NCBI RefSeq assembly: GCF_001428045.1
Contig: NZ_LMSD01000010.1
Location: forward strand, 2,385-66,384
Direction of reading: 5' to 3'
Source: Paenibacillus sp. Soil750
GTDB lineage: Bacteria; Bacillota; Bacilli; Paenibacillales; NBRC-103111
DNA: 64,000 nt
In this document: in pieces, positions 35,509 through 49,093 of the stretch
How positions within the stretch are numbered: the stretch's first letter is position 1
Layout of the letters: each line of letters opens with the position of its first letter
The notes under the pieces: generated by a model
Database searches by the model: none
What the model was told of the DNA's origin: nothing
The model's input: the letters and a program-made list of their open reading frames with translations, nothing else
Made by a program: the position numbers and the translations under genes

Positions 35509-36858
35509 ATGCTTAAAAAACTACAGAAAATGCCTGCGTCAAGACTTATTGTTATCGCTTATCTAATTGGCATATTTCTTATCGCCATCCTTCTTAAATT
35601 ACCTATCAGTTTAAAAGCGGGCGCCACAATCTCCTTTGTGGACGCCCTCTTTACATCAGCTAGTGCTGTCAGTGTAACCGGTCTGACAACGGTTGGTATC
35701 AATGAAACGCTCAGTAGTTTCGGCGTTGGTGTACTTATCGTCGCTTTTCAATTCGGTGGGATCGGCGTCATGACGTTGGGGAGCTTCTATTGGCTATTGT
35801 TTGGGCAGGAAATCGGCTTACTGCAGCGGAAGATGATTATGATTGACCAGAATCGTAATAATTTATCTGGATTGGTTCAGTTAATGAAGCTAGTGCTGGG
35901 CTTTACGCTGATTCTAGAGGCGATTAGTACATTGGCATTTGGCTTGTATTTCTATTTTACAGGAGAGTACGGGTCGATTTGGAGTGCATTGTACTATGGG
36001 ATGTTTCATACCATTTCGGCGTTTACGAATGCTGGATTTGATCTGTTCGGTAATTCTTTGCTTAATTATTCGAGTGATTATTTCGTTCAAGCACTTACGA
36101 TGTTCTTGATTGTATTAGGCGGGATTGGGTTTCCAGTACTGGCTGAGCTGCGAGAATATTTTTGGGGTGGGCATAAGAATTTCCGTTTCTCCCTTTTTAC
36201 CAAGCTGACACTCGTTACGACATCGGTATTGTTATTGTTTGGGACGATTGGCTTCTGGTTGATGGAGCGAACGCATGCGTTGGCAGGGATGAGCTGGCAT
36301 GGGAAAATACTTACGGCACTCTTCACATCCGTCACATCGCGCAGCGCTGGACTTACAACCATTGATATGTCTACTATTACAGAGGCAAGCTTGTTGCTTG
36401 TTTCTATCTTAATGTTTATTGGGGCAAGCCCATCCAGCATGGGGGGCGGTGTTCGAACAACGACCGTAGCCGTTATTGTACTGGCCCTTATTGCGTATGC
36501 GCGCGGGGAGAAAGAACCAAAGGTATTCGGTCGGATGATAAGCCAAGAGGATTCACTCAAAAGCTTTGTGTTTTTCCTAACGGGTATAGCACTGCTTCTC
36601 GGTGGGATCTTCATTCTCCTGATAGCTGAACCGAACCGGTGGGGAGTGTCTGCGATCCTATTCGAGGTGGCGTCTGCGTTCGGTACGTGCGGTTTATCCA
36701 CGGGAATCACCGCAGATCTTGGTACCTTTAGCAAAATCTCGCTTATCGTGCTCATGTTTATCGGAAGGATCGGATTGTTTCTATTCTATTCCTTATTTAC
36801 CAACGGTAAGAAGAAACCTCTCATCCGCTTTCCAGAAGAAAAGCTAATCATTGGTTGA
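35509..36858 (+). CDS. K+ transporter membrane subunit, KtrB/KtrD-type
   Basis: 449 residues forming the four-repeat K+ channel fold. The selectivity-filter glycines occur in SVTGLTTVG, FTNAGFDLFG, SRSAGLTTID and GTCGLSTGI. It imports K+, probably Na+-coupled, and normally needs a cytoplasmic KtrA/KtrC RCK gating subunit, which is not in this window. Terminator at 36884. Confidence 0.93.
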   Translation: MLKKLQKMPASRLIVIAYLIGIFLIAILLKLPISLKAGATISFVDALFTSASAVSVTGLTTVGINETLSSFGVGVLIVAFQFGGIGVMTLGSFYWLLFGQEIGLLQRKMIMIDQNRNNLSGLVQLMKLVLGFTLILEAISTLAFGLYFYFTGEYGSIWSALYYGMFHTISAFTNAGFDLFGNSLLNYSSDYFVQALTMFLIVLGGIGFPVLAELREYFWGGHKNFRFSLFTKLTLVTTSVLLLFGTIGFWLMERTHALAGMSWHGKILTALFTSVTSRSAGLTTIDMSTITEASLLLVSILMFIGASPSSMGGGVRTTTVAVIVLALIAYARGEKEPKVFGRMISQEDSLKSFVFFLTGIALLLGGIFILLIAEPNRWGVSAILFEVASAFGTCGLSTGITADLGTFSKISLIVLMFIGRIGLFLFYSLFTNGKKKPLIRFPEEKLIIG

Positions 36859-36883
36859 GCGGTCAGGCAACTCAACACATATT

Positions 36884-36917
36884 AACCGAGAAGGATCTAC
36901 GATCCTCCTCGGTTTTT
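36884..36917 (+). terminator. Rho-independent terminator of the Ktr gene
   Basis: AACCGAGAAGGATC pairs with GATCCTCCTCGGTT, followed by TTTTC. Confidence 0.88.
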
Positions 36918-37034
36918 CATTTTGAATAAGGCTTATCTCTTTAAACATTTCTTTTTCAGTCTGCCCCAGGAAATACTGGATATTTCAAACCTTTTCTGTA
37001 GATTAGCGCATAGGAAGGGATAGGCACTTTCCCC

Positions 37035-37057
37035 TATACTTAGTGTAAGCGTTTTAT
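37035..37057 (+). promoter_or_regulatory. -10 box and cre-like site of the sulfatase gene
   Basis: TATACT (37035-37040) is followed 3 bp later by TGTAAGCGTTTTAT (37044-37057), identical over 14 bp to the site in front of GH125 at 26474-26487. It implies shared catabolite control of sulfatase and mannan genes. Confidence 0.65.
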
Positions 37058-37077
37058 CCGAAAAGGGGGATTTACTT

Positions 37078-38538
37078 TTGAGCCGACGCCCGAACATTCT
37101 ATTCGTCACGACAGACCAACAACGATACGATTGCCTTGGGATAGCTGATTCCATGCATCCCGTTATGACACCACACTTGGATCAACTAGCGTGCGAAGGG
37201 ATCCGTTTCACAAGTGCATATTCCGATTGTCCGCTTTGCATCCCATCCCGGACGTCGATGATGACTGGCCAAGCTGCCTATCATCATGGTGTAGCCAAGA
37301 ATGGGGAGTTTCGTATTCCTGAGGATTCGAAAATGACCTTGCCTGGCAGGTTGAGCACCGCTGGCTATCAAACGCATGCTGCTGGCAAGATGCAGTTCAT
37401 TCCACCAAGGAATCGAAATGGCTTTGAACGGATGAGACTCGTTCCAGAAGATTATGTGAACTACCTTGAAACCACGGAATATCGAGGATTATATCGTGGT
37501 CATGGTATGGGTGGAAACGAAGTATATCCCGTTTATAATTCAGTTCCCATTCCATATTCAGCAACACATTGGACAGTGAATGAGTCGATCGACTTTTTGC
37601 GTCAGCGTGATTCTGAGATGCCTTTCTTCCTATGGACCAGCTTCGAAGCGCCACATCCACCCTATGACCCGCCAGAATCCTTTGTCAGACTCTATGACGG
37701 TGTGGACATTTCGTCGCCGGTAGCTGCAGCTTGGAATACATCGGAGGAGGTTCCTGAATGGGTTCGTACGAGGAAGAAGAGTCATAAAATAGATGTTTTA
37801 CCTCCACACATCGTAAGTATGGCAAGGAAGCATTATTACGCGCAACTGACTCATATTGATTATGAACTAGGACGATTATTTGGTGAATTAAAAAGCAAGC
37901 AGCTGTGGGATAACACAGTTGTTATCTTTACTTCAGACCATGGAGAGATGCTGGGGGACCACGGGTTATTTCACAAAACCTGCTTCTACGAAGCTTCATC
38001 CAAAGTTCCCTTCCTTTTGAAGCCGCCGAAAGATTGGCAGGGAGCCCTAACCACCTCGACTGTTAGCGCAACACCTATCATATTGGCTGATATTTACCCG
38101 ACTGTGCTTGAATTTGCTGGATGCCTGCAGGAGGATGATCAGAAAAGAGACGGATGCAGCTTACTGAATTTGACCTCATTATCAGAGGAGCGCCCGTGGA
38201 TTTATGGCTATATGAATGATCTGGATGGATTGTATATGGTAACGAACGGCGAGTGGAAATATCTCTATTATGTCTGCGGGGGGAGTGAGCAGTTGTTCGA
38301 CCTCGTGCAGGATCCAGAAGAAAGAAATGATCTTAGTCAGGATTCAAATACTAGGAGTTGCGATATGCTGGAGACGTTGAGAACGTTGTTAACGACGAAG
38401 TTTCCTGAATTACTCGCTAACGATACAGTTGAAAAAAGGATGCTCTTCCACACACAGCCCAATCTAACTGAAGAGCACTTGAAAGCGACGAATCCATTCG
38501 CCTGGCGAGGTCCAATGCGTTACGGCGGTCAGTGGTAG
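37078..38538 (+). CDS. sulfatase (formylglycine type)
   Basis: A 486-residue type I sulfatase. The signature C54-I-P-S-R58 contains the cysteine expected to become formylglycine, and metal ligands appear in the N-terminal NILFVTTDQQRYD and in VIFTSDHGEMLGDHGLFHK. No signal peptide is visible, so it should be cytoplasmic and act on an imported sulfated sugar, unless the start is misplaced. TTG 37078 has AAGGGGG 8 nt upstream. A cre-like site precedes it. No maturase for the cysteine is in the window. Confidence 0.93.
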   Translation: MSRRPNILFVTTDQQRYDCLGIADSMHPVMTPHLDQLACEGIRFTSAYSDCPLCIPSRTSMMTGQAAYHHGVAKNGEFRIPEDSKMTLPGRLSTAGYQTHAAGKMQFIPPRNRNGFERMRLVPEDYVNYLETTEYRGLYRGHGMGGNEVYPVYNSVPIPYSATHWTVNESIDFLRQRDSEMPFFLWTSFEAPHPPYDPPESFVRLYDGVDISSPVAAAWNTSEEVPEWVRTRKKSHKIDVLPPHIVSMARKHYYAQLTHIDYELGRLFGELKSKQLWDNTVVIFTSDHGEMLGDHGLFHKTCFYEASSKVPFLLKPPKDWQGALTTSTVSATPIILADIYPTVLEFAGCLQEDDQKRDGCSLLNLTSLSEERPWIYGYMNDLDGLYMVTNGEWKYLYYVCGGSEQLFDLVQDPEERNDLSQDSNTRSCDMLETLRTLLTTKFPELLANDTVEKRMLFHTQPNLTEEHLKATNPFAWRGPMRYGGQW

Positions 38539-38600
38539 CCAAGTCAACAGCCCACACGCGGACCAGAAGGAGGTGTCGGAGACGTCTCAATGGAAATTTT

Positions 38601-38631
38601 TTGAATACCATAAGTTGTAAAATGTTATAAT
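38601..38631 (+). promoter_or_regulatory. sigma-A-like promoter ahead of the TerD genes
   Basis: TTGAAT (38601-38606), 19-bp spacer, extended -10 TGTTATAAT with TATAAT at 38626-38631. The predicted start lies only a few bases before the hairpin at 38641. Confidence 0.5.
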
Positions 38632-38640
38632 AAGATAAAA

Positions 38641-38676
38641 CGCAGCCTAGGATCGTCCTGTGGCTGTTTTTCTTTT
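38641..38676 (+). terminator. hairpin with T-run between sulfatase and terD
   Basis: CAGCC..AGGA-tcg-TCCT..GGCTG followed by TTTTTCTTTT. It can be the sulfatase terminator, but it lies downstream of the promoter at 38601 and could therefore also attenuate terD transcription. Confidence 0.7.
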
Positions 38677-38809
38677 GAATTCTGGGGGATTTTGACTACT
38701 GAAGTCGAATTCACAAATAATTTACCCAGGAAAGTGAAACGTGATTGAATTTCATGCGTATCAGATAAGGGAGTTCACTAAAACAGGTAAGCGAAGGGAG
38801 GTGACCTCG

Positions 38810-39409
38810 TTGACAATCAGTTTAGTCAAAGGTCAAAAGATTGATTTAACAAAAGGTAACGCAGGTCTTTCTAAAGTTGTGGTTGGATTGGGTTGGGATC
38901 CTGCAGTTGTTGAGAAGAAGGGGTTCTTCGGCTCTAAGAAATCGGCAGTTGAGATCGATTGTGACGCTTCCGTGATTTTATTGGATGAAAAGGGAAGAAT
39001 AACCAACCAGAAACATGTGATTTATTTTGCTAATCTACAAAGCCCTGATGGTTCAGTCGTTCACTCTGGTGACAACCGTACCGGAGATGGCGATGGTGAC
39101 GATGAGACAATTTCTATTAATTTAGGACAAGTTCCTGCAGATGTGAGTAAAATCGCATTCGTCGTGAATATCTACGACTGCGTGAATAGAAAGCAGGATT
39201 TCGGTCTCATTCAATCAGCTTATATCCGTGTATTGAATGGTGCTAATCAACAAGAGTTGGTTAAGTTTAACTTAACTGATGACTACTCAGGTAAATCATC
39301 CCTTATTGTTGGTGAAATCTACCGACATGGCGGCGAATGGAAATTCAGTGCAATTGGTGAAGGAAGTACAGATACTACCATTGGACAATTGGTCAAAAGA
39401 TATCAATAA
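38810..39409 (+). CDS. TerD family protein (TerD-1)
   Basis: A 199-residue cytosolic TerD-type Ca2+-binding protein. It opens LTISLVKGQKIDLTKG and has the acidic metal-binding loop DNRTGDGDGDDE. It carries an extra segment (VEKKGFFGSKKSAVEIDCDAS, split by charged residues) not present in TerD-2. The start is TTG 38810 with AGGGAGGTG 6 nt upstream; the frame reaches back to 38741 but those residues precede the TerD domain. First gene of the Ter region; TerD proteins act in membrane-associated stress complexes with TerC. Confidence 0.92.
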   Translation: MTISLVKGQKIDLTKGNAGLSKVVVGLGWDPAVVEKKGFFGSKKSAVEIDCDASVILLDEKGRITNQKHVIYFANLQSPDGSVVHSGDNRTGDGDGDDETISINLGQVPADVSKIAFVVNIYDCVNRKQDFGLIQSAYIRVLNGANQQELVKFNLTDDYSGKSSLIVGEIYRHGGEWKFSAIGEGSTDTTIGQLVKRYQ

Positions 39410-39447
39410 TGGCACAGCCAAATCCTATATAAAGAGAGGTATTTCAC

Positions 39448-40029
39448 ATGTCTATTTCATTATCTAAAGGTCAGAAAGTCGATTTAACGAAAACAAACCC
39501 AGGTTTGACGAAAGTTCTTGTTGGCTTAGGATGGGACACGAACAAATATGATGGCGGTAAGGATTTCGATTTGGATGCTTCCATTTTTGCAGCGAATGCT
39601 GCTGGTAAAGTTGGCAACGAATCCGATTTTATTTTCTACAACAACACTAAAAATGCGAATGGTTCTATCGAGCACAAAGGTGACAATCGTACAGGAGCAG
39701 GCGATGGTGATGATGAAGTTATCTCCATTGATCTTAGCGCAGTACCTGCTGAAACAGAGAAAATCGCATTCTGCATTACGATTCATGATGCGGAAGCAAG
39801 AGCTCAAAACTTTGGACAAGTTTCCAATGCGTATGTGCGTGTGCTAAATGAGGGATCTGGCGCGGAATTAATTCGTTTTGATCTTGGTGAGGATTTCTCC
39901 ATTGAAACAGGCGTTGTTATCGGTGAACTTTACCGCAATAACGGCGAGTGGAAATTTAGCGCAATCGGCAGCGGTTATAAAGACGGATTAGCAGGCTTGG
40001 CACGTGATTATGGTTTACAAACTTCCTAA
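39448..40029 (+). CDS. TerD family protein (TerD-2)
   Basis: A 193-residue canonical TerD protein: [42 protein letters not shown] and [16 protein letters not shown]. It is highly similar to YceD/YceE of B. subtilis. It follows TerD-1 by 38 bp with GAGAGGT before the ATG, so it is probably cotranscribed. A hairpin at about 40047-40077 lacks a real T-run and may allow read-through to terC. Confidence 0.94.
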
Positions 40030-40247
40030 TAGGAAGTCTAATGTAATAGGGTGGTGCTTTCCGGAGCATCACCCTCCCTACTCTTCTTAATCAATTCAAC
40101 TCGAGAAATGGTTTCATTTGACCAGCTTTGTTGCGTTATGGATTGGAATTCAATGATCCGAGTAGACGAATCGTGTAATCGGTGAATGAGATAGATGAGG
40201 AAGATCGCGTCAGGATGATTAGCAATTAAAACAGGGGGTCCATCTTA

Positions 40248-40994
40248 ATGTCAGACTTTTTCCAAAGTTTTGTAGATAATTTCATGAATTTCTTTAGCTG
40301 GGATGTGCTCTCAGCAACACTAACTGATCCCGTAAACTGGGGGATTATCGGTACACTCGTCCTTCTCGAAGGATTGCTATCCGCAGATAATGCGCTAGTA
40401 CTTGCTGTAATGGTTAAGCATTTGCCGAAGCAACAACAGAAACGAGCTTTATTTTATGGTCTATTAGGAGCCTACATATTTAGGTTTATCGCCATTGGTG
40501 TGGGTACGTTCTTAGTACAGATTACCTGGATTAAGGTAGCCGGTGGGGCGTATCTCCTTTGGATTGCTTATAGTAATCTCTTCATGAAGAAGCATAGCGA
40601 CGAAGACGGGGAAGTCAAGAATAAAGGTCTTTCCTTCTGGCGTACCGTTCTTGCCGTAGAAATCATGGATATCGCATTCAGTGTCGATAGCGTTCTTGCC
40701 GCATTTGGTGTGAGCGACAAGGTATGGGTATTGTTCTTAGGTGGTATCTTAGGCGTCCTCATGATGAGAGGCGTGGCACAAGTCTTCTTGAAGCTCATTG
40801 ACAAGATTCCGGAACTGGAGAGAACAGCGTTTATCTTAATTATCGTCATCGGTCTTAAAATGATTGCTGGAGCATTCGGCTTCCACATCTCACATGTGAT
40901 CTTCTTCTCCGTCATTATTGCCTTGTTCGGAGGAACGATCATTCTAAGCATGCTTCGTAAAAAGAACAAGTCTGGATCCGTAAAAGAATCTTAA
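40248..40994 (+). CDS. TerC family integral membrane protein (YceF-like)
   Basis: A 248-residue membrane protein with about seven helices and the conserved acidic residues of the family (LLEGLLSADNALVLAVMVKHL, VEIMDIAFSVDSVLAAFGV). TerC proteins are implicated in metal (Mn2+) efflux or metalation at the membrane and partner with TerD. GGGGGT precedes the ATG by 8 nt. No yybP-ykoY riboswitch was recognised in the 218 bp upstream. Confidence 0.93.
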   Translation: MSDFFQSFVDNFMNFFSWDVLSATLTDPVNWGIIGTLVLLEGLLSADNALVLAVMVKHLPKQQQKRALFYGLLGAYIFRFIAIGVGTFLVQITWIKVAGGAYLLWIAYSNLFMKKHSDEDGEVKNKGLSFWRTVLAVEIMDIAFSVDSVLAAFGVSDKVWVLFLGGILGVLMMRGVAQVFLKLIDKIPELERTAFILIIVIGLKMIAGAFGFHISHVIFFSVIIALFGGTIILSMLRKKNKSGSVKES

Positions 40995-41018
40995 TCTTAT
41001 TTATAATTGTAGACAATG

Positions 41019-41050
41019 GACAATCCCTCCTCTATGGAGGGATTGTTTAT
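41019..41050 (+). terminator. terminator-like hairpin after terC
   Basis: ACAATCCCTCC / GGAGGGATTGT stem with a 5-nt loop but a weak T-tract (TTTATTG). It separates terC from the biosynthetic operon, possibly only partially. Confidence 0.6.
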
Positions 41051-41074
41051 TGAAATAAAGAGGGAGGAATCGGC

Positions 41075-42178
41075 ATGCGATATTTCAATTATTTAACCGC
41101 GGATGAAGAGAAAGCTTTATTTTATTTACCGCCGAATTCCTTCCATAATCATTCGCACAAAGACATTTTAGCTCATTCTGTCGGTGCTGCTCTGTACATG
41201 CCAGCGACCCGACGTACGTTCGCAGAAGATATTGCTTTTGGTAAAATCGAAGGCTTAGTGTCCGTTGTTCTTGATCTGGAGGATGCTGTAGGTGATAACG
41301 AAGTGCATGCTGCAGAAGAATCGCTTATTGGACAAATGAATCAGATCGCCCATTGGATGGAAGTTGGTATTGTAAGTGCAGAGAATCTGCCGCTGATATT
41401 CATTCGTGTAAGAAGCGTGAATCAATTAAACTATGTGCTAGAGAGACTGGAAGAGCATGTAGCCCTTCTAACGGGTATTGTGTTCCCGAAATTTACTGTG
41501 GAAAATGGCGAGGATTATTTTCAAATTCTAGAAAATTACAATGATGAGAAATCGGCATCTGCACCAATTTTATATGGATTACCGATTCTGGAATCTGCCT
41601 CGATTATTTATAAAGAAAGCCGCACTTTTACCTTATTGGCGATTAACGAAATTATAACGAATTTTAAGGATTTGGTCTTGAACATCCGGATTGGCGCAAC
41701 TGACTTTTCAAGCTTATTTGGGCTGAGACGAAGTCCGGACAGAACGATTTATGACATCGCCCCGATACGGGATTGTGTCGCTGATATTATTAATATTTTT
41801 GGTCGTATGGAAGCCAACAACGTGATTTCTGGACCTGTTTGGGAATATTTCGGTGTGAAGGGACTCCTACATGAAGTGATGCTGGATAAAGAGAATGGCT
41901 TGATCGGTAAAACAATTATTCATCCTACGCACATTAAGCCAGTGCAAGCTCTCTACGCGGTCACACATGAAGAATATACGGATGCTATAAGCATTCTGAA
42001 GAACAATCATGGCGACCTTGGAGTTATGAAGAGTGTCTACGGCAATAAAATGAATGAATTCAAACCCCATTTCAATTGGGCGAAACGTATTCTTTTACGA
42101 TCACAAGTTTATGGGGTGCTGCATGAACAACAAACCTTTGATGGATTACTCACTAGGCCTAACCGAGCGTACGTATAA
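41075..42178 (+). CDS. CitE-like (HpcH/HpaI aldolase family) C-C bond lyase of the Ter operon
   Basis: A 367-residue TIM-barrel lyase. The hallmark VVLDLEDAVGDNEVHAAEESL motif is present, along with IFIRVRSV, GIVFPKFT, IRIGATDFSSLFGLRR and IHPTHIKPVQALY, giving the Mg2+ and acyl/keto-acid site. The exact substrate is unknown. It is first in a five-gene operon (41075-46493) with overlapping genes; this set is found next to terD/terC in many bacteria and is predicted to build a nucleoside-like metabolite. Confidence 0.9.
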   Translation: MRYFNYLTADEEKALFYLPPNSFHNHSHKDILAHSVGAALYMPATRRTFAEDIAFGKIEGLVSVVLDLEDAVGDNEVHAAEESLIGQMNQIAHWMEVGIVSAENLPLIFIRVRSVNQLNYVLERLEEHVALLTGIVFPKFTVENGEDYFQILENYNDEKSASAPILYGLPILESASIIYKESRTFTLLAINEIITNFKDLVLNIRIGATDFSSLFGLRRSPDRTIYDIAPIRDCVADIINIFGRMEANNVISGPVWEYFGVKGLLHEVMLDKENGLIGKTIIHPTHIKPVQALYAVTHEEYTDAISILKNNHGDLGVMKSVYGNKMNEFKPHFNWAKRILLRSQVYGVLHEQQTFDGLLTRPNRAYV

Positions 42179-43538
42179 AATAGCAGGCGATTTGGAGCTG
42201 CACGTCACCGTGACTTCCAATCCCCACAACATACCGCTCGACGCCTTATTCGCGATGGCGGCGAGAATTAATAAGAAACGATCTTTTTTGTTTGTAAGCA
42301 AAGTGTTAGGCAAACATATCCCGGTGAATCCGTACACGTCATTGTTAAGTGGAACTACTTTAGCGATATTATTGCAGGAAGCGTTACAAGGAACGAAGTT
42401 AGAAGAGAAGGTACAGCTGGCTGTTGAGGGGCTAGTATACTCGGATAAAGCGGAAACGGCCTATAAAGCGATTATGTCTGAACGTTTACCATTAAAGCAG
42501 CCTATTGCTTTCATTGGATTTGCGGAAACAGCGACGGCCATTGGGCATGCGGTCTATGAAGCTTTTGGGCAAGGAAGCCATTATTTGCACACGACACGTG
42601 AAGTGATCGAAGAATCACCGTCCATTCTGCAATTCCAAGAAGAACACTCGCATGCTACAGATCACTATGGATATTCGGATAATCCTGCCATTCTTGCGCA
42701 GCCTGATATTCTCGTTCTCGTCGATGATGAAATTACGACAGGCCGAACGTCGCTTAATATCATTCGCGACCTGCAAGGGAAATACCCTAAGAAAATGTAC
42801 TACGTGTTAGCACTGCTGGATTGGCGGACAGAGGAAGACATCCTACAATTTGCCCAGTTGGAGCAGGAATTGCATATTACGATTCACGTCATCTCATTAA
42901 TTCGCGGGAATACGAAGGTAGTTGGCTCTAGCGAAAGCTTGCCATTGCAAGCACCTAGCCCTTTACCTGAGGAGCGCACAGAACTTCTGCAAATTTCTTA
43001 TGTGAATCAACTATTCTCCCACGCTCCTTATGCAGGTAACAGGCCCTATTTGCAACATAGCGGAAGGTTCGGACTTACCCCCTCCAATACCGCACAACTG
43101 GATCGTTCCATCACGCAGACGGCCGAGCTGCTCAAACGTAAACGTACAGGGAACAAGACACTCTGTGTGGGCACGGGGGAGTTTATGTATATCCCGATGC
43201 GTATTGCTGCTGAGATGGGGTCAGGGGTGTCTTATCAATCGACGACACGCAGCCCTATTCATGTCATGGAGCACCGAGACTATGCGGTGAAATATGGTCA
43301 TGCCTTCCCTTCTCCAGAAGATGAACAAGTCGTGCACTTCTTCTACAATATCCCGTACGGCACGTATCAGGAGCTCTTTCTTTTTATGGAAAGAGAAGCT
43401 TCCCCTTCATCTATGGAGCCGATTCTGCGAATTCTCCAAGCAAAGGGACTGCATACCCTGCATATCGTCTTCTTCTCGCCTCAATCGGTCGATTGGAAGG
43501 AGGCTACGGTATGGAAGCTTGGCAATCCAGACGCATAG
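42123..43538 (+). CDS. phosphoribosyltransferase with TRSP domain
   Basis: 471 residues. The N-terminal half is a PRTase with the PRPP-binding loop LVLVDDEITTGRTSLN (about residues 200-215). The C-terminal half is the TRSP domain, with the naming motif at T375-R-S-P378. ATG 42123 has GGGGTG upstream and overlaps the lyase gene by 56 nt; the longer frame from 42054 is not supported by a ribosome site. It should transfer phosphoribose in the predicted Ter-linked nucleoside-like pathway. Confidence 0.9.
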   Translation: MNNKPLMDYSLGLTERTYKIAGDLELHVTVTSNPHNIPLDALFAMAARINKKRSFLFVSKVLGKHIPVNPYTSLLSGTTLAILLQEALQGTKLEEKVQLAVEGLVYSDKAETAYKAIMSERLPLKQPIAFIGFAETATAIGHAVYEAFGQGSHYLHTTREVIEESPSILQFQEEHSHATDHYGYSDNPAILAQPDILVLVDDEITTGRTSLNIIRDLQGKYPKKMYYVLALLDWRTEEDILQFAQLEQELHITIHVISLIRGNTKVVGSSESLPLQAPSPLPEERTELLQISYVNQLFSHAPYAGNRPYLQHSGRFGLTPSNTAQLDRSITQTAELLKRKRTGNKTLCVGTGEFMYIPMRIAAEMGSGVSYQSTTRSPIHVMEHRDYAVKYGHAFPSPEDEQVVHFFYNIPYGTYQELFLFMEREASPSSMEPILRILQAKGLHTLHIVFFSPQSVDWKEATVWKLGNPDA

Positions 43539-44644
43539 ATGACCCCCAACCAATGGGGAGTTATCCACCTGGTGATGTGACATTTCTACTGAAGGATATC
43601 AGCAACATCAAGCTGGAAGTCGCCTTAGATGCCAGAGAGCGAGCTATCCAATCTGGAACGCACTATTCGGAAATGCTTCCTCAGGAACATCTGCCTTCCT
43701 CTGATTATTTGAACCTATATCAAGAAACACTCGAGCTGTCTGCAGAGAAAGTAGCCGTATCCGTAGGTGTGGTAGCTGAGCTTATCCGAACAAACAAAGG
43801 GCCGAACACGGTCCTCGTTTCCTTGGCTAGAGCGGGCACACCTGTAGGCATTCTGATCAAGCGATACTTGCAAGAGATCCACCAGATGAACCTGCCGCAT
43901 TATAGTATCTCGATTATTCGAGGCAAGGGGATTGATGAGAACGCTCTCTTGTACATGTTGCAGAAACATCCGGGTGCAAGGCTGCAATTCATTGATGGGT
44001 GGACAGGCAAGGGGGCCATTCGTAAAGTGCTTACCCAAGCTTGTGGCAAAATGGCAAGGGATTACGGGATCATCCTAGACGATGATCTAGCGGTACTCGC
44101 CGATCCTGGGCATTGTACAGACATGTTCGGAACCCGTGAGGACTTTCTCATTCCGAGTGCATGCCTAAACTCGACGGTCTCCGGTTTAATGAGTCGTACC
44201 GTGCTGCGCGACGATTTAATTGGGCCCCATGATTTTCATGGCTCGAAATATTACAAAGAATGGTTGGATCACGATCAGTCTAATCATTTCATCGGATCGA
44301 TTGTTCCTTTTTTCAACAAGGTGACTAAGGAAGCTCAGGAGATGGCTCAATCTTTTGTGACCCATCCACCTGAAATTTCCTGGCATGGCCTTCGGGATAT
44401 CCAAGCGATTCAGACGACCTATCAGATGGCAGATATCAACTTGATTAAGCCTGGTGTGGGAGAAACGACTCGTGTTCTGCTTAGGAGAGTACCGTGGCGG
44501 ATCTTGGTAGATCGCATGGATAATCCGCATATTCGGCATATCTTGCTGCTAGCTGAGGCACGCGGTGTACCTGTTGAGGTGTATCCAGGCCTCACGTATT
44601 CATGTTGCGGCCTCATACAATCTGTGAAAGGGGATGCCGAATGA
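43511..44644 (+). CDS. StiP-family protein with PELOTA-like RNA-binding domain
   Basis: 377 residues. The body belongs to the family annotated 'cysteine protease StiP' but is PRTase-like (TVLVSLARAGTPVGILIKRY, SIIRGKGIDENAL, FIDGWTGKGAIRKVL). The C-terminal ~100 residues (LIKPGVGETTRVLLRRVPW, ILLLAEARGVPVEVY) fit the PELOTA RNA-binding domain. ATG 43511 has AAGGAGG 7 nt upstream and overlaps the previous gene by 28 nt. A second PRTase-type enzyme in one operon suggests modification of a base, nucleotide or RNA; the protease label is doubtful. Confidence 0.87.
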   Translation: MEAWQSRRIDDPQPMGSYPPGDVTFLLKDISNIKLEVALDARERAIQSGTHYSEMLPQEHLPSSDYLNLYQETLELSAEKVAVSVGVVAELIRTNKGPNTVLVSLARAGTPVGILIKRYLQEIHQMNLPHYSISIIRGKGIDENALLYMLQKHPGARLQFIDGWTGKGAIRKVLTQACGKMARDYGIILDDDLAVLADPGHCTDMFGTREDFLIPSACLNSTVSGLMSRTVLRDDLIGPHDFHGSKYYKEWLDHDQSNHFIGSIVPFFNKVTKEAQEMAQSFVTHPPEISWHGLRDIQAIQTTYQMADINLIKPGVGETTRVLLRRVPWRILVDRMDNPHIRHILLLAEARGVPVEVYPGLTYSCCGLIQSVKGDAE

Positions 44645-45474
44645 TTTATGCCAGTGATTTAGATCAGACCTTAATCTATTCCCAGCCACCAGAACGTGCG
44701 GAGCACTTGGGAGATCGTATCATGGTTGCCGAGCTGATCGATGGCAAAGTGAGATCCTATATGTCCTCCAGCACATATCAACGATTGCAAGAGCTGATGA
44801 ATGAACTCATTTTCATCCCAGTGACAACGCGAACGATTGCCCAATATGAGCGAATACATCTCATCAGTCAAATTCTGAAACCCCAATATGCGGTTACAAG
44901 CAACGGGGGGAATATGTTGATCGACGGCAAGGTGGATATGGAGTGGCGAGATCTTGTCAGGACGCGTGTCAGCGAGACGAGTGCTCCTGTCGAGGATGTT
45001 CGCCAAGTTATGCATAGCGTTCTAAGCCAGGACTGGGTGATCAGCTCAAGTTGGTGCGATGATCTCTTCTACTCCCATATCGTCGAGCGCGACCGCATGC
45101 CTGTGCAGGAAATAGCCGATTTGAGCAACCAGTTGAAGGATATGGGCTGGCGCACTTCTGTTCAAGGAAGGAAGGTCTACATCGTCCCTGAGGCCGTGAG
45201 CAAGGGTGCAGCAGTCGCACATCTGAAGCAAATACTTGATGGTCGGAAAGTCATTGCTTCCGGTGATTCCCTACTGGATCAGAGCTTGTTAGACATCGCT
45301 GATTACGCGATTGCTCCAGGTCATGGAGAGTTATTTCGCCAAGAACAAATAACCCCATCCGGGATATACAGATTTACGGAGGAATCCGGCATTTTTGCAG
45401 CTGATGACATCACCACATTTGTTCATTCCACACATAGCGAGCACCGAATGTTGCTCATAAAGGAGCCCTCATGA
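44641..45474 (+). CDS. HAD superfamily hydrolase of the Ter operon
   Basis: A 277-residue HAD phosphatase. The nucleophile motif is D6-L-D8-Q-T in MIYASDLDQTLIYS, and the C-terminal motif IVIASGDSLLDQSLL is visible (read as KVIASGDSLLDQSLL), with SNGGNMLIDG typical of the Cof/SPP type. The ATG overlaps the StiP stop by 4 nt (ATGA); an upstream in-frame start at 44602 lies inside StiP. Likely role: dephosphorylation of a pathway intermediate. Confidence 0.9.
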   Translation: MIYASDLDQTLIYSQPPERAEHLGDRIMVAELIDGKVRSYMSSSTYQRLQELMNELIFIPVTTRTIAQYERIHLISQILKPQYAVTSNGGNMLIDGKVDMEWRDLVRTRVSETSAPVEDVRQVMHSVLSQDWVISSSWCDDLFYSHIVERDRMPVQEIADLSNQLKDMGWRTSVQGRKVYIVPEAVSKGAAVAHLKQILDGRKVIASGDSLLDQSLLDIADYAIAPGHGELFRQEQITPSGIYRFTEESGIFAADDITTFVHSTHSEHRMLLIKEPS

Positions 45475-46493
45475 AAAAAGTATGGTTTAACCGCTGGTTC
45501 TCTGTTGCTTATCATTACATGAACAGCATCCGTAACAATGAGGATGGGGCTCAGTTTAAGATGTATGCAACACATCCCGATCGAACCCACATGGCGCTGC
45601 AAGCAGCGGACTTTGCAGATACAGAGCCTGTTCTTGGCGATGACGACTATGTAGAATTTGCACTGAATTTTTGTAAACAACATGGGATTGATGTGTTTAT
45701 TCCTAGGCTGCATATGTACGCGATTGCCAAGCATATCGATGAATTTGAGAAAATCGGTACACGTGTAACGGTTTGTCGTGATCTGGAGCTCTTAGAAAAT
45801 CTCATGGAAAAGCAGAAATTCTACGAATCCATCCGGCCTAAGGGAATCGTAGCGATTCCTGATTATCATGTGGTGAATACGGCGGAGGAATTTCTTAGGG
45901 CGAACGATGCGCTTACAGCGGCTGGTCATGACGTCTGTATGAAGCCAACGAATGGTGAGGGCGGCAATGGATTTCGGATTATCAGCAATAAGCGGAATGC
46001 GCTCACTGATATGTTTGGACCGGTAATGCCGTATCTCACGAAAGAGCAAGCCTATCAGAACTTATCGACTGTGGAACGTTTTGATGACGTCATGGTTATG
46101 GAAGTACTGGGTGGCCATGAATACAGCATCGATTGCTTAGCTTCCGCGTCTGGTGAGCTTCTTGCTGCTGTCCCGCGTCGTAAGGCGGATGGACGATTGA
46201 GGTTGTTGGAGGAAGTACCAGAGCTGATTGAACTTGCTAACCGGGTAGCTGCTACCTACCGCATTCCATTTAATTATAATATTCAAGTTAAATACAATCA
46301 GGGTGTACCGAAGCTGTTGGAGATTAATCCGCGGATGTCAGGCGGGTTACATGTCACTTGTTTATCAGGCATTAACTTCCCTTATTTAGCTGTAAAATCG
46401 CTGCTTGGCGATCATGTTGAAGTCCAAAAGCCAACCTTCGGCCTATTGGCAAGCCATATTGAGCAATATGTTATTATGAATCTCGGTGAATAA
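45471..46493 (+). CDS. ATP-grasp ligase of the Ter operon
   Basis: A 340-residue ATP-grasp enzyme. The ATP-binding region reads DVCMKPTNGEGGNGFRII (about residues 155-172), with VMEVLGGHEYSIDCLA and KLLEINPRMSGGLHVT as the metal-binding end. It should form an amide or similar bond between a carboxylate and an amine in the last step of the pathway. The ATG overlaps the HAD stop by 4 nt (ATGA). Confidence 0.92.
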   Translation: MKKVWFNRWFSVAYHYMNSIRNNEDGAQFKMYATHPDRTHMALQAADFADTEPVLGDDDYVEFALNFCKQHGIDVFIPRLHMYAIAKHIDEFEKIGTRVTVCRDLELLENLMEKQKFYESIRPKGIVAIPDYHVVNTAEEFLRANDALTAAGHDVCMKPTNGEGGNGFRIISNKRNALTDMFGPVMPYLTKEQAYQNLSTVERFDDVMVMEVLGGHEYSIDCLASASGELLAAVPRRKADGRLRLLEEVPELIELANRVAATYRIPFNYNIQVKYNQGVPKLLEINPRMSGGLHVTCLSGINFPYLAVKSLLGDHVEVQKPTFGLLASHIEQYVIMNLGE

Positions 46494-46563
46494 TCACTGC
46501 CGCGCATCATATCTTTGATAAGAGATGATCATTTCGTATCAATCAGCAAAGAGGGTGCGCGGT

Positions 46564-46665
46564 ATGATCGTAGGCGGAATTATCTTATTCGGAATTATTG
46601 TCACGTTAATCGTCATAGCAAGTGCAGAGAAAGCGGAATATGTGTCCAATTTTATCGATAAATAG
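46564..46665 (+). CDS. small membrane protein, 33 residues
   Basis: ATG 46564 has GAGGGTG 6 nt upstream. The product is one hydrophobic helix (IVGGIILFGIIVTLIVIA) with a short charged tail (EKAEYVSNFIDK). A terminator follows 9 bp after the stop. I do not recognise the family. Location right after the ATP-grasp gene suggests, but does not prove, cotranscription with the Ter operon. Confidence 0.65.
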   Translation: MIVGGIILFGIIVTLIVIASAEKAEYVSNFIDK

Positions 46666-46673
46666 TCATCTTT

Positions 46674-46699
46674 GAAGCCTGAAAAGGTTTCTTTTTTTT
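46674..46699 (+). terminator. Rho-independent terminator ending the Ter operon
   Basis: GAAGCC / GGTTTC stem (one G-T pair) followed by eight T. Confidence 0.8.
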
Positions 46700-46754
46700 G
46701 CTTCGATTTGGTAGAATAGAAGATAGGTAGTTTACTATGTGAAGGAGATTTAAC

Positions 46755-47363
46755 ATGCTGCAATTAAGCGATAGTCAACTTGCAACAATGTGGAGTCAAG
46801 GAGATGCGAAAGCGTTTAATCGACTTCTGGAGCTGTATAAGGACAGAATTTATCGATTAGCTTTTCGTATGCTTAGAAATAAATCAGATTCCGAAGATGT
46901 TGTTCAGGAGACTTTTTTGCGTGCACATTTGAATTCACACCGATTTGACGCTACCAAAAACTTCTCGAGCTGGATCTTTAGCATAGGCAAAAATGTCACG
47001 ATTGATCTGATGCGGAAGAAGAAAAAAGAACTCTCCATGGATACAAGTGGGTTTCCATCCCATGATGAACGTCCCCTGATTGAGAAGTTGGTGAGTCATG
47101 AGAAGACGCCTGAGCTTCAGCTTATTGAACAAGAAACATATAGCCAGGTAGAACAAATGATTCAAGATCTGCCAGACAAATATAAAGACCTTATTGTTTA
47201 CAAATATTATTTGGATATGTCCTTAGAAGACATCAGCCGAGAAGTGAATTTACCTGTTTCTACGATTAAAACGAGGCTTTTCCGTGGCCGGAATTATATC
47301 AAAAGAAAATGGGGATCCTTATTCTTCATGCTGCATAGCTTATCCACGATGATCATTTTATAA
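46755..47363 (+). CDS. ECF RNA polymerase sigma factor (SigW-like)
   Basis: 202 residues with sigma-2 (AFRMLRNKSDSEDVVQETFL, FSSWIFSIGKNVTIDLMRKK) and sigma-4 (DLPDKYKDLIVYKYYLDMSL, VSTIKTRLFRGRNYIKRKW). It resembles the SigW group. The C-terminal ~15 residues are unusually hydrophobic (LFFMLHSLSTMIIL). No anti-sigma factor gene follows; the next gene is a pentapeptide-repeat protein after a terminator. TerCD-type operons are SigW-controlled in B. subtilis, so control of the neighbouring Ter genes is possible, but I see no clear ECF promoter there. Confidence 0.92.
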   Translation: MLQLSDSQLATMWSQGDAKAFNRLLELYKDRIYRLAFRMLRNKSDSEDVVQETFLRAHLNSHRFDATKNFSSWIFSIGKNVTIDLMRKKKKELSMDTSGFPSHDERPLIEKLVSHEKTPELQLIEQETYSQVEQMIQDLPDKYKDLIVYKYYLDMSLEDISREVNLPVSTIKTRLFRGRNYIKRKWGSLFFMLHSLSTMIIL

Positions 47364-47366
47364 AGG

Positions 47367-47390
47367 TAAGCCGGTAAGGCTTATTTTTTT
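47367..47390 (+). terminator. Rho-independent terminator
   Basis: TAAGCC / GGCTTA stem with a 5-nt loop followed by TTTTTTT after the ECF sigma gene. Confidence 0.82.
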
Positions 47391-47420
47391 GCCCATTACC
47401 TGATGTTAAAGGAGTTATTC

Positions 47421-48065
47421 ATGAGTAATCCTAAATTAGATGCACCCAAAATGCCTAAAGAATTGCCCGTCATAACCTTGCAAGAAGGAAAATTTGAACC
47501 TGAGGATAGTTTTCATACTGGCATCATTAGTGATTGTGTCATTGATAATCAGTCAGCCTATAAGGTCGCCTTTGATAAAGTTATTTTTCGCAATGTGACA
47601 TTCACACGAATAGCGATGAAAGAAATTGAATTTACAGATGTTATTTTTGATCGATGTGATTTATCGAATGTCGACTTTACAGAAGCAACGATACATAGAA
47701 CGGAATTTCGGAATTGCAAAATTATCGGCATGGATCTTACTGGATCTACATTACGAAACATCCTTTTTCAAGATTGCTTAGGGGATTTTGCAACCTTCCG
47801 AATGGCAAATCTCAAACAAATCACGTTTCATACGTGTTCTTTAAACAACTCAGATTTTTATGAAGCGACTTTGCAAAAGCTACAATTTGAGGTTTGTCAA
47901 TTGGAACAAGCACAATTTACGGGTACGAAACTGGATGGAATCGATCTCAGCACATGTGAATTCACAAGCTTAGGTGTAAGTATTGAGGATCTGCGAGGAT
48001 GCATCATTTCTAGAGAACAGGCTTCGGTATTTGTAAGTCTTTTTGGGATCAAACTAAAGGAATAG
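47421..48065 (+). CDS. pentapeptide repeat protein
   Basis: 214 residues. From about residue 40 to 200 the sequence runs in five-residue periods centred on Leu/Phe (FDRCDLSNVDFTEATIHRTE, then MDLTGSTLRNILFQDC), predicting a right-handed quadrilateral beta-helix. Function cannot be read from the repeats; some relatives protect gyrase. ATG 47421 has AAAGGAG 6 nt upstream; the frame opens at 47403 without a site. The nucleotidase gene follows after 26 bp. Confidence 0.88.
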   Translation: MSNPKLDAPKMPKELPVITLQEGKFEPEDSFHTGIISDCVIDNQSAYKVAFDKVIFRNVTFTRIAMKEIEFTDVIFDRCDLSNVDFTEATIHRTEFRNCKIIGMDLTGSTLRNILFQDCLGDFATFRMANLKQITFHTCSLNNSDFYEATLQKLQFEVCQLEQAQFTGTKLDGIDLSTCEFTSLGVSIEDLRGCIISREQASVFVSLFGIKLKE

Positions 48066-48091
48066 AGGCAAGGTGAATGGAGGGTTAGACG

Positions 48092-48655
48092 GTGAAACTT
48101 GGATTTGATATTGATGATACCCTCATTAATCTAAGAGAGCATGCGTTTCATATTTATAATCAGAAGCTGCAGCAGGACATTGGGCTAGATGTATTTCATG
48201 CTTTGCCTACGATGGAAATTCACAGTGCTTTTGGACTAACCAAGGAAGAAGGCGGGAAGTTGTGGTACAGCTTACGTGATGAGATTTATTATTCAGACTG
48301 TGCGTTATTCCCCCACGCGCGTGAGGTTTTGAACAGGCTGGTGGAGCAAGGTCATGAGGTGTATTACATTACGGCTCGAGCCAAAGAGCATACGGAGCGC
48401 ACACGACAATGGTTGATCGACCATGGATTTCCTGTCGCAGAGGGGCATTTCTTCTGTGGGATGAGTGATTCCGAGAAAGTACATATCATAGAGGCACTAG
48501 AGTTGGATTATTATTTTGATGATAAACCGACCGTTCTGGAGACATTAGCGCACCTGCCTGTCCGCATTTGTGTGAAGGACAGATCCTATAATCAACATCT
48601 GGAATTGCCTCGGATTACGTCTTGGGACGAGCTTGATGAGCTTATGAAGGGTTAA
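48092..48655 (+). CDS. 5'-nucleotidase, HAD family (NT5C/YqfW-like)
   Basis: 187 residues. The HAD nucleophile motif is in LGFDIDDTLINLREH, followed by VYYITARAKEHTERTRQWL and YYFDDKPTVLETLA. This fits the NT5C-type (deoxy)nucleotidase group with a small cap, which dephosphorylates nucleoside monophosphates. GTG 48092 has GGAGGG about 8 nt upstream. Confidence 0.85.
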   Translation: MKLGFDIDDTLINLREHAFHIYNQKLQQDIGLDVFHALPTMEIHSAFGLTKEEGGKLWYSLRDEIYYSDCALFPHAREVLNRLVEQGHEVYYITARAKEHTERTRQWLIDHGFPVAEGHFFCGMSDSEKVHIIEALELDYYFDDKPTVLETLAHLPVRICVKDRSYNQHLELPRITSWDELDELMKG

Positions 48656-48702
48656 AAAAGTGAACAGGTGCTCGCATCGTTACAACACGATTCGAGCACC
48701 TG
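48655..48702 (-). terminator. terminator hairpin, minus direction
   Basis: CAGGTGCTCG (48665-48674) pairs with CGAGCACCTG (48693-48702), followed on the minus strand by GTTCACTTTTTT. It would terminate the lost minus-strand gene at 48680. Confidence 0.75.
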
Positions 48703-48796
48703 GCTGAGGGGAGAGCAGATCTTGCTCTCCCTCTTTTTCTAGCTGTTGGAGCAGCGCATCTGTATCCCGTTTCGGGGCATGGACGAGCAGCTTGTA
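48680..48796 (-). pseudogene. C-terminal gene remnant, unknown family
   Basis: The minus strand contains an open stretch of 38 codons ending in TAA (48682-48680), reading KLLVHAPKRDTDALLQQLEK, then GEQDLLSPQPGARIVL. It has normal protein-like composition and is followed by a strong terminator hairpin (48665-48702) with a T-run in the same direction. Immediately upstream is an in-frame stop and then the C-depleted tract. I infer that the 5' part of a gene was lost and only its 3' end and terminator survive. I do not recognise the family. Confidence 0.45.
48706..48739 (+). terminator. Rho-independent terminator, plus direction
   Basis: GAGGGGAGAGCA / TGCTCTCCCTC stem followed by TTTTT. It probably ends the pentapeptide/nucleotidase transcript. 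Confidence 0.82.
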
Positions 48797-48799
48797 TTA

Positions 48800-49007
48800 G
48801 TGGGGAGAAGGGCAGGTAGGGAAGAGCAAATTGGGAACGTAGTGAGTAAGGAAGGGGAGTGCAATGAGGAAAAGTAGTTCATAAGAAATAGGGGAGTGGA
48901 ATTGGTAAGTTAGTGCGTGGAAAAGGTTAGTGTAGTTGGGTTAAGTGGGGGGTTGATTAGGGGGGCGTATGTTAGTTAGGAATGAGGGATGGTTGAGGAT
49001 TGGATCG
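48800..49007 (+). other. C-depleted, G-rich non-coding tract
   Basis: Only 8 C occur in about 208 bases on this strand, against frequent G-runs (GGGG, and GGGGGG twice around 48947-48965). There is no usable reading frame, repeat unit or known RNA motif. It fills the gap between the remnant at 48680 and yunB. Confidence 0.8.
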
Positions 49008-49093
49008 TCTTTTTCAAAACATGTCCGCATAAGGTAGTACTAATGAATTATGGCGAATAAGTAGGAATTGGTCACGGAGAAAGGGGGAGACGC

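What the first reader, a model, noticed from the sequence alone, without database searches (positions are those of the whole stretch)
38810..46493. Ter stress module with a nucleoside-like metabolite operon
TerD-TerD-TerC followed by CitE-like lyase, PRTase-TRSP, StiP-PELOTA, HAD and ATP-grasp genes with overlapping ends matches the gene set that comparative genomics linked to Ter systems and predicted to make a nucleoside-like compound. The product is, to my knowledge, not chemically established. The two PRTase-type proteins and the PELOTA domain hint at RNA or ribonucleotide chemistry.
Basis: partly seen in the sequence, partly recalled or inferred. Interest (0 to 1): 0.72.

Follow-up and report, generated by a model that had tools for sequence, protein, structure and literature searches.

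The report
Envelope-stress Ter operon making unknown riboside
A Paenibacillus-like bacterium carries a known but biochemically unsolved stress gene cluster whose enzymes look built to attach ribose to an unidentified small molecule, and its layout suggests when it is switched on and which steps form its core.

Summary
In detail: TerD (TTG start 38810), TerD, TerC, then CitE-like lyase, PRTase_2-TRSP, StiP-PELOTA, HAD and ATPgrasp_Ter, all above Pfam cut-offs. It is the Ter-linked biosynthetic module already described in print; an E. coli IncHI2 plasmid carries the same enzymes. So it is a new member of a known kind, product still unknown.

What the tools add. (1) CitE, PRTase_2 and StiP are all-or-none: the same 30 of 200 class genomes; all 30 have TerD, 16 the ATP-grasp. 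(2) PRTase and StiP are fused in 11 of 80 loci. (3) StiP, labelled a cysteine protease, models as a type I phosphoribosyltransferase (pLDDT 92) and has no cysteine shared by all 22 diverse members. (4) An exact SigW-type promoter starts the operon in 25 of 27 family-level loci, this one included (0.02 expected). (5) A terminator-like hairpin separates terC from the enzyme genes in 27 of 27 (2.6 in shuffles).

Best reading: an envelope-stress-controlled PRPP-dependent ribosylation pathway partnered with TerD. "Nucleoside-like" stays unproven; PRTase+HAD pairs also make O-ribosides.

The parts
38735..38760 (+). SigW-type ECF promoter, TGAAAC-N16-CGTA
   Evidence: Exact match (0.35 chance matches expected in the 64 kb for N15-18). 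An exact N16/17 site starts the operon in 25 of 27 family-level loci including the window, 0.02 expected from the density of other sites; the loci share ancestry.
38810..39409 (+). TerD domain protein 1 (TTG start)
   Evidence: PF02342 241.7 bits; ribosome-binding site read
39448..40029 (+). TerD domain protein 2
   Evidence: PF02342 277.6 bits
40248..40994 (+). TerC-family membrane protein, YkoY/MeeY type
   Evidence: PF03741 188.7 bits; TIGR03716 253 bits, cut-off 138.5
41014..41052 (+). 17-bp hairpin between terC and citE, terminator-like (leaky or regulated, inferred)
   Evidence: Fold -27.5 kcal/mol, z -4.27; a hairpin with T-containing tail at this junction in 27 of 27 family loci, shuffled mean 2.6. 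The window's own T tail is weak
41075..42178 (+). CitE-like C-C bond lyase/aldolase
   Evidence: PF15617 383.6 bits; E69-D70, P170..E173, G207..D210 and H283-P284 invariant in 20 of 20 sequences; profile hits RipC 3qll E 4.1e-8
42123..43538 (+). PRTase_2-TRSP protein (open frame from 42054; start 42123 inferred)
   Evidence: PF15609 236.7 and PF12500 145.9 bits; DDE..TG PRPP loop; model pLDDT 90.8, adenine PRTase Z 13.2
43511..44644 (+). StiP-PELOTA protein (open frame from 43493; start 43511 inferred)
   Evidence: PF11202 346.8 and PF15608 115.9 bits; model pLDDT 92.3; PRTase fold
44641..45474 (+). HAD-IIB phosphatase, sucrose-phosphate-phosphatase-like (open frame from 44602; start 44641 inferred)
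   Evidence: PF05116 38 bits; D19, D21, T75, R77, K201, G221, D226 invariant and D222, S223 at 90% or more in 22 sequences
45471..46493 (+). ATP-grasp ligase (ATPgrasp_Ter)
   Evidence: PF15632 152.7 bits; E-x-N-x-R-x-SGG invariant in 13 of 13; profile hits 2pn1 E 2.1e-14
46674..46691 (+). terminator-like hairpin with a run of T, probable end of the operon
   Evidence: 7-pair stem then TTTTTTTT; pattern match only
46755..47363 (+). ECF sigma factor, SigW-like; candidate regulator, not shown to be part of the operon
   Evidence: NF007223 188.6 bits, below its 209 cut-off

Best explanation
This is a two-tier envelope-stress operon. A SigW-type ECF sigma factor starts transcription at 38735-38760 (inferred from a conserved promoter). 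TerD, TerD and TerC are made first. A conserved hairpin after terC lets only part of the transcripts through (inferred) to five tightly coupled enzyme genes. These carry out a PRPP-dependent ribosylation: the CitE-like enzyme makes or trims the carbon skeleton of an acceptor, PRTase_2-TRSP and StiP use PRPP to attach ribose-5-phosphate in consecutive or joint steps, the HAD enzyme removes the 5-phosphate, and the ATP-grasp enzyme ligates an extra group where present. The resulting small ribosylated metabolite works with TerD, which was found in all 30 sampled genomes that have the module. Shown here: gene set, intact motifs, PRTase folds of both proteins (models), natural fusion of the two, all-or-none co-occurrence in the sample, promoter and hairpin conservation. 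Inferred: reaction order, substrates, product, the sigma factor that acts, and read-through.
For: Families over cut-off. PRTase_2 over cut-off, StiP, and C-C_Bond_Lyase at E below 1e-100 fall in the identical 30 of 200 class genomes; all 30 have TerD, and ATP-grasp hits of 150 bits or more lie in 16 of the 30 and in no other of the 200 (compared). Near StiP: PRT 45, HAD 45, CitE 43, TerD 45, TerC 37, ATP-grasp 34 of 45 loci; PRT 78, HAD 79, CitE 77, TerD 76, TerC 54, ATP-grasp 24 of 80 named loci. PRT-StiP fused in 11 of 80. StiP model: 34 of the 40 Foldseek rows with E up to 0.001 are HGPRT or PyrR, probability 0.99-1.00; Bcs3 CriT Z 11.4 over 202 residues and PyrR about Z 10. PRT model: APRT Z 13.2 over 175 residues. 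Promoter 25 of 27; hairpin 27 of 27. The B. subtilis yceC-yceH operon is in the SigmaW regulon (PMC3498285, passages). TerC relatives MeeF/MeeY export Mn and metalate secreted enzymes (PMC12096827, passages).
Against: No enzyme has been assayed and no metabolite measured in anything I saw. Loci and genomes share ancestry, so the counts are not independent events. Genome-wide the promoter pattern is only mildly enriched (33 sites against 22 for the reversed control), so the case rests on conserved position; it is found in only 3 of 14 loci of the wider phylum draw, 0 of 4 plasmid/phage records and 31 of 80 named loci. terC-citE is the only non-coding junction compared, and shuffles do not control for that; in the window the T tail is weak. 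Six of the 40 best Foldseek rows for StiP are PLP enzymes at probability 0.38-0.77, and TM-scores to the PRTases are modest, about 0.4-0.54 of the target. Tellurite resistance needs only terZ-F, or terC with terD or terE, without the enzymes (PMC8115787; PMC8779313; passages). ATP-grasp is missing near the module in 56 of 80 named loci and CitE from the phage copy. A shared fold shows no function.
Confidence: 0.55

Rival explanations
1. The product is an O-linked ribofuranoside, of a small molecule or of a cell-envelope glycan precursor, not a nucleoside. StiP acts like the glycan PRTase CriT of Bcs3: it moves ribose-5-phosphate from PRPP to a hydroxyl group and the HAD enzyme removes the phosphate.
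For: Polysaccharide ribosyltransferases are a PRPP-using PRTase-fold module plus a HAD phosphatase (PMC10299916; PMC12887879; passages). The top structural match of StiP is Bcs3 residues 639-947, inside CriT, Z 11.4 over 202 residues. CriT lacks the vicinal DD motif; StiP likewise has one acid in F-[VI]-D-G-W-T-G-[KR]-G. The HAD domain matches sucrose-phosphate phosphatase, 38 bits. Envelope-stress-type promoter.
Against: Bcs3 is not among the sequence matches of StiP at E up to 10. PRTase_2 has the canonical DDE..TG loop and is nearest to adenine PRTase. No glycan-polymerising gene among the ten neighbouring proteins scanned.
Confidence: 0.2
2. The module is a nucleoside signal pathway in the strict sense: it makes an N-riboside that reports phage or toxic attack, TerD or TerB sense it and TerC responds.
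For: Proposed for jumbo phages (PMC7824862, passage), where the copy in phage ME3 has TerC, TerD, PRTase, HAD and StiP but no CitE or ATP-grasp found. Adenine-PRTase-like fold of PRTase_2.
Against: No TerB among the proteins scanned beside the module here (not searched genome-wide). TerC is not near the module in 26 of 80 named loci. The CitE-like and ATP-grasp enzymes are not explained by a simple base-plus-PRPP reaction.
Confidence: 0.2
3. StiP acts on RNA: the PELOTA domain docks RNA and the PRTase domain modifies or salvages its ribose or base, so the operon is an RNA-repair or attenuation system; StiP may even control the hairpin upstream of citE, as PyrR controls its operon.
For: PELOTA_1 115.9 bits; L7Ae/Snu13-type proteins make up most of the sub-threshold list for that region; PyrR-like fold; conserved hairpin before citE.
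Against: L7Ae match not significant (best E 0.031). On the IncHI2 plasmid the enzyme genes are divergent from terC, and in phage ME3 other genes lie between terC and the enzymes, yet StiP is kept (hairpins there not examined). Hairpin sequences differ between genera and I saw no shared loop; I ran no K-turn search.
Confidence: 0.08
4. The enzymes run in the breakdown direction: a salvage pathway that clears damaged nucleotides or ribosides made under stress.
For: PRTases are reversible; HAD phosphatases and CitE-like lyases often act in degradation (general knowledge, no call).
Against: The ATP-grasp ligase suggests synthesis; constant pairing with TerD.
Confidence: 0.1
5. StiP is a cysteine protease, as the family name says, and the operon processes Ter proteins.
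For: Pfam and NCBI names. One cysteine is invariant in the 42 sequences of alignment A6.
Against: Across 22 diverse members the best-conserved cysteine reaches 82%; the E. coli, Pseudomonas, phage and L094 rows have other residues there. The model matches PRTases.
Confidence: 0.03

Closest known systems
Ter-associated biosynthetic module (predicted in Anantharaman, Iyer and Aravind 2012, title seen only; E. coli IncHI2 and Klebsiella ter loci)
   Same: Same enzyme set on the IncHI2 plasmid viewed: ATP-grasp, PRTase, HAD, StiP, CitE-like, beside TerD and TerC genes; a putative biosynthetic cluster is noted beside Klebsiella ter (PMC8115787, passages).
   Different: Here the enzymes lie downstream of terD-terD-terC on the same strand, behind a SigW-type promoter and a hairpin; on the IncHI2 plasmid they are divergent from the terZ operon, with TerB present.
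Bacillus subtilis yceCDEFGH operon
   Same: Stress operon with the TerC protein MeeF, under SigmaW among others (PMC3498285, passages; PMC10550928, passages); that its first genes are TerD paralogues is recalled.
   Different: B. subtilis is not among the control genomes that ring for StiP.
Polysaccharide ribosyltransferases (Hib Bcs3 CriT + CrpP; E. coli K13 KrkA)
   Same: PRPP-using PRTase fold plus HAD phosphatase; no vicinal acid pair in CriT or StiP.
   Different: No detectable sequence similarity, no polymerase partner seen, an added canonical PRTase, CitE and ATP-grasp.
PyrR (RNA-binding PRTase homologue)
   Same: StiP PRTase domain resembles it (Z about 10).
   Different: StiP has a separate PELOTA domain and sits among enzymes of an unknown pathway.

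Membership tests
Ter-linked biosynthetic module | TerD and TerC genes alongside | tested here: met
Ter-linked biosynthetic module | CitE-like lyase, PRTase_2-TRSP, StiP-PELOTA and HAD genes together | tested here: met
   around StiP, CitE in 43 of 45 and PRT and HAD in 45 of 45 loci
Ter-linked biosynthetic module | ATPgrasp_Ter ligase | tested here: met
   152.7 bits, cut-off 29.1; optional across the family
Ter-linked biosynthetic module | Makes a nucleoside-like metabolite | not testable with these tools
   Needs metabolomics and enzyme assays
Type I phosphoribosyltransferase (PRTase_2 protein) | PRPP loop with vicinal acids, DDE..TG | tested here: met
   D201 D202 E203 invariant in 40 of 40; D225 E226 T229 G230 invariant in 22 of 22, D224 at 90% or more
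Type I phosphoribosyltransferase (StiP) | PRTase fold | tested here: met
   Model pLDDT 92.3; HGPRT/PyrR in 34 of the 40 Foldseek rows with E up to 0.001, probability 0.99-1.00; Z about 10 over about 145 residues. Prediction, not an experimental structure
Type I phosphoribosyltransferase (StiP) | Canonical PRPP loop with two vicinal acids | tested here: not met
   F-[VI]-D-G-W-T-G-[KR]-G; single acid, 22 of 22. CriT also lacks the pair
Cysteine protease (StiP family name) | Conserved catalytic cysteine | tested here: not met
   Best cysteine 82% in 22 diverse sequences, replaced in E. coli, Pseudomonas, phage and L094 rows; invariant only in the 42 closer ones
Glycan PRTase + HAD ribosyltransferases (Bcs3 type) | Homology to CriT | tested here: inconclusive
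   Top VIA row Z 11.4, 202 residues, 7% identity, tied with others; no sequence hit
Glycan PRTase + HAD ribosyltransferases (Bcs3 type) | Neighbouring HAD phosphatase | tested here: met
   HAD in 45 of 45 and 79 of 80 loci
SigW orthologue (gene 46755-47363) | Score over the SigW equivalog cut-off | tested here: not met
   188.6 against 209; 166 against 243.1. A better candidate, 241.5 bits and also just below, lies at G000:C17
MeeF/MeeY-type TerC | TIGR03716 YkoY family | tested here: met
   253 bits, cut-off 138.5
MeeY (riboswitch-controlled TerC) | yybP-ykoY Mn riboswitch upstream | tested here: not met
   No such match in 34000-50000 at E up to 1

The most novel reading that the evidence does not exclude
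The long-predicted Ter nucleoside is not a nucleoside: StiP is a PRPP-dependent O-ribosyltransferase related in fold to capsule ribosyltransferases, and with PRTase_2 and the HAD phosphatase it makes a multi-ribosylated small molecule, or ribosylates an envelope precursor, on demand of SigW-type envelope stress. The dose is set by read-through of a conserved terminator between the Ter proteins and the enzymes.
Probability: 0.17. Interest if true: 0.75.

Novelty: new member of a known kind. Interest (0 to 1): 0.48.

Why it matters
Ter clusters are widespread: StiP relatives occur on 2,567 of 72,556 plasmid records searched, 2,205 of them in Klebsiella, Escherichia, Enterobacter and Salmonella. 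The Ter genes, though not yet the enzyme half, are linked in print to tellurite, phage and colicin resistance (PMC12054061, passage) and to gut fitness (PMC8115787, passages). The chemistry of the enzyme half has stayed a prediction in all I saw. The all-or-none enzyme core, the natural PRTase-StiP fusion, a corrected label for StiP and a defined candidate promoter turn that question into concrete assays in laboratory strains.

Tried and rejected
Cysteine protease reading of StiP: rejected for lack of a universally conserved cysteine and because of the fold. Riboswitch before terC: not found; the only Rfam row, whalefall-1 at 41021-41069, is below its gathering score (27.3 against 37) and covers part of the terC-citE hairpin. 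TelA: in the genome but on other contigs; TerB was not searched genome-wide. Pairing of the hairpin's 5' arm with the citE ribosome-binding site: looked possible by eye in the window's relatives, but the CCTCC arm is not kept in the Bacillaceae loci, so I dropped it. The downstream ECF gene as the dedicated regulator: 7 of the 19 other same-genus loci show no ECF copy in the fetched stretch yet keep the promoter, so SigW or a paralogue is as likely. A hunt in viral contigs gave 2 loci, one with the contig length of phage ME3 (234,900 bases) and evidently that phage again; the other (L192) was not analysed. phmmer of StiP and PRTase against the PDB gave nothing useful (best row for StiP an arginine decarboxylase, E 0.008). 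VIA rows do not exclude families that are not listed.

Limits. The 80 named loci are the best 80 of at least 596 and overlap the unnamed family set: L100 and L101 have the contig lengths of G037:C83 and G053:C1. Some absences may be contig edges (L136, L158, L161, L170); L112 and L167 lack PRT and CitE although flank is present. The HMMs were built here, starting from the window proteins, and were used on relatives of the sequences they were built from. In 'near' means from 250 bases before to 40 bases after the start of the first gene of a run of ter-module frames; the 1,132,530 bases count both strands. The shuffle controls are 5 rounds each, and the stretch tested (130 bases after the first gene) can reach into citE. 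In the phylum draw the HAD|ATP-grasp junction also had a hairpin in 2 of 3 loci. The hairpin pattern was tuned to the window's genus and missed others; one search is the count to use. Other Foldseek rows for PRTase_2 at E up to 0.001 include an ATP citrate lyase and a luciferase-like enzyme at lower probability. The strong-hit lists compared were read by me, using over-cut-off hits (PRTase_2, StiP, TerD), E below 1e-100 (lyase) and 150 bits or more (ATP-grasp). Set aside: 31 further PRTase_2 genomes, all under the cut-off; 25 further lyase genomes, 22 of them over the cut-off; and weaker ATP-grasp hits, which put 191 of 200 genomes over that profile's cut-off. One of the four extra TerD genomes (G169) has a frame with a stop inside.
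Full report
WHAT IS THERE. The window holds, on the + strand, terD (38810-39409), terD (39448-40029), terC (40248-40994), a CitE-like lyase (41075-42178), PRTase_2-TRSP (about 42123-43538), StiP-PELOTA (about 43511-44644), a HAD phosphatase (about 44641-45474) and ATPgrasp_Ter (45471-46493); all pass Pfam cut-offs. The closest named StiP relative found is from Paenibacillus oryzisoli, 89% identical (very near records may be left out there); the genome is 8.3 Mb. The enzyme genes overlap, the Ter genes do not. Catalytic motifs look intact: PRPP loop DDE..TG in PRTase_2, acid residues and HP motif in the lyase, DxD, K and GDS-D in the HAD enzyme, E-x-N-x-R-x-SGG in the ATP-grasp enzyme.

THE MODULE AS A UNIT. 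In 200 genomes drawn from the class, PRTase_2 over its cut-off, StiP (15 of 95 genera) and strong C-C_Bond_Lyase hits fall in exactly the same 30 genomes. TerD is in all 30 and in 4 others (G169, G459, G497, G553). Strong ATP-grasp hits are in 16, all inside the 30 (sets compared). In the 80 best named genome loci the counts are StiP 80, HAD 79, PRT 78, CitE 77, TerD 76, TerC 54, ATP-grasp 24. The two loci of the first set without CitE are Acinetobacter phage ME3 (L053) and a distant StiP relative (L094). So PRT, StiP and HAD form the core, CitE is nearly fixed, ATP-grasp is an added step, and TerD rather than TerC is the constant partner. In 11 of 80 named loci the PRTase-TRSP and StiP-PELOTA proteins are one polypeptide, which points to joint or consecutive steps. 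Genomes and loci share ancestry, so these are not independent events.

STIP IS A PHOSPHORIBOSYLTRANSFERASE FOLD. AlphaFold2 on 42 aligned sequences gives pLDDT 92.3, pTM 0.92. Of the 40 Foldseek rows with E up to 0.001, 34 are HGPRT or PyrR (best E 1.5e-5, probability 0.99-1.00, TM-score of the target about 0.4-0.54); the other 6 are PLP enzymes at probability 0.38-0.77. VIA-align gives Bcs3 Z 11.4 over 202 residues and PyrR/HGPRT about 9-10.5, mostly over 130-167 residues. No cysteine is conserved in more than 82% of 22 diverse members, though one is invariant in 42 closer ones. The PRPP-loop-like stretch F-[VI]-D-G-W-T-G-[KR]-G has one acid, not the usual pair. The matching region of Bcs3 is CriT, which transfers ribose-5-phosphate from PRPP to a hydroxyl and also lacks the vicinal acid pair; a HAD phosphatase then removes the phosphate (PMC10299916, passages; the general pairing in PMC12887879, passages). 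This is a lead: the Z values are tied and no sequence similarity was found. PRTase_2 models at pLDDT 90.8 and matches adenine PRTases, Z 13.2 over 175 residues.

REGULATION. An exact TGAAAC-N16-CGTA lies at 38735-38760. In the 27 family-level loci, window included, 27 exact N16/17 sites occur in 1.13 million bases (both strands counted), and 25 of them sit at the first gene of a ter run, one in each of 25 loci; 0.02 would be expected. The two loci without are L071 and L076. The figure is 31 of 80 in the named set (0.40 expected), 3 of 14 in the phylum draw and 0 of 4 on plasmid and phage records. Some spacers are near-identical between close relatives, others have diverged. Genome-wide in this genome the pattern is only mildly enriched, 33 against 22 for the reversed control. 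B. subtilis yceC-yceH is listed in the SigmaW regulon (PMC3498285, passages), so this extends a known control to loci with the enzyme genes. The adjacent ECF gene is SigW-like but below the SigW cut-offs.

A HAIRPIN BETWEEN THE TWO HALVES. At the terC-citE junction a hairpin with a T-containing tail is found in 27 of 27 family loci (mean 2.6 in shuffles), 37 of 49 named loci (7.0) and 2 of 5 in the phylum draw (0.4). At the other junctions of the family loci the counts are 0, 3, 4 and 1 of 27 (shuffles 4.2, 2.4, 2.2, 2.4); these junctions are coding and overlapping, so they are not a like-for-like control. In the window it folds at -27.5 kcal/mol, z -4.27. Stem sequences change between genera while pairing is kept by eye; I did not run a formal covariation count. 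The simplest reading is partial termination that keeps the enzymes below the Ter proteins.

FUNCTION. terZ-F alone gives tellurite resistance in E. coli (PMC8115787, passages), as do terC with terD or terE (PMC8779313, passages), so the enzymes are not needed for that. TerC relatives MeeF and MeeY export Mn and help metalate secreted enzymes (PMC12096827, passages). C. difficile TerD1 and TerD4 synthesis rises with metronidazole (PMC6262375, passages), and a C. difficile locus has the module without ATP-grasp or TerC nearby (L172). My best reading is an envelope-stress-induced ribosylation pathway whose product works with TerD.

NOVELTY. The gene set and the nucleoside prediction are known from the 2012 paper (not held; seen only in reference lists and citing passages) and the jumbo-phage paper (PMC7824862, passage). 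No measured product turned up in the held library with the searches (mostly listings). New here, as far as those searches go, are the conserved promoter and hairpin around the enzyme genes and the fold-based relabelling of StiP; the 2012 paper, which I could not read, may already contain parts of this.

Noticed in passing
window 46564-46665 (+): A 33-aa hydrophobic small open frame (MIVGGIILFGIIVTLIVIASAEKAEYVSNFIDK) between the ATP-grasp gene and the terminator-like hairpin; near-identical copies at the same place in 5 of the 26 other family-level loci scanned (L061, L066, L069, L070, L077), and a distant look-alike in L076.
   Followed up: partly
G000 contigs C4, C44, C41 (TerD) and C24, C34 (TelA): The genome has further TerD genes and two TelA genes away from this operon.
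   Followed up: no
window 47403-48065 (+): Pentapeptide-repeat protein directly after the ECF gene; a relative lies downstream of the module in all 19 other same-genus loci fetched.
   Followed up: no
window 56163-56187 (+): A second exact SigW-type promoter pattern, TGAAAC-N15-CGTA.
   Followed up: no
L053 1031-1801 and 2736-3362: In Acinetobacter phage ME3 the compact Ter module lies near genes annotated NAD synthetase and Appr-1-p processing protein, which may hint at NAD or ADP-ribose chemistry.
   Followed up: no
Neobacillus, Cytobacillus and related loci such as L122, L125, L131, L139, L141, near 12,200-12,270: A second exact SigW-type site downstream of the HAD gene, in loci that have a further TerD group there; the distance to those TerD starts was not measured.
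   Followed up: partly
L112 and L167: Loci with StiP and HAD but no PRTase or CitE in the fetched flank; possible degraded or rearranged modules.
   Followed up: partly
G508:C8:126349-128376: PRTase_2 and StiP hits share one 846-aa open frame, another natural fusion outside the 80 named loci.
   Followed up: no
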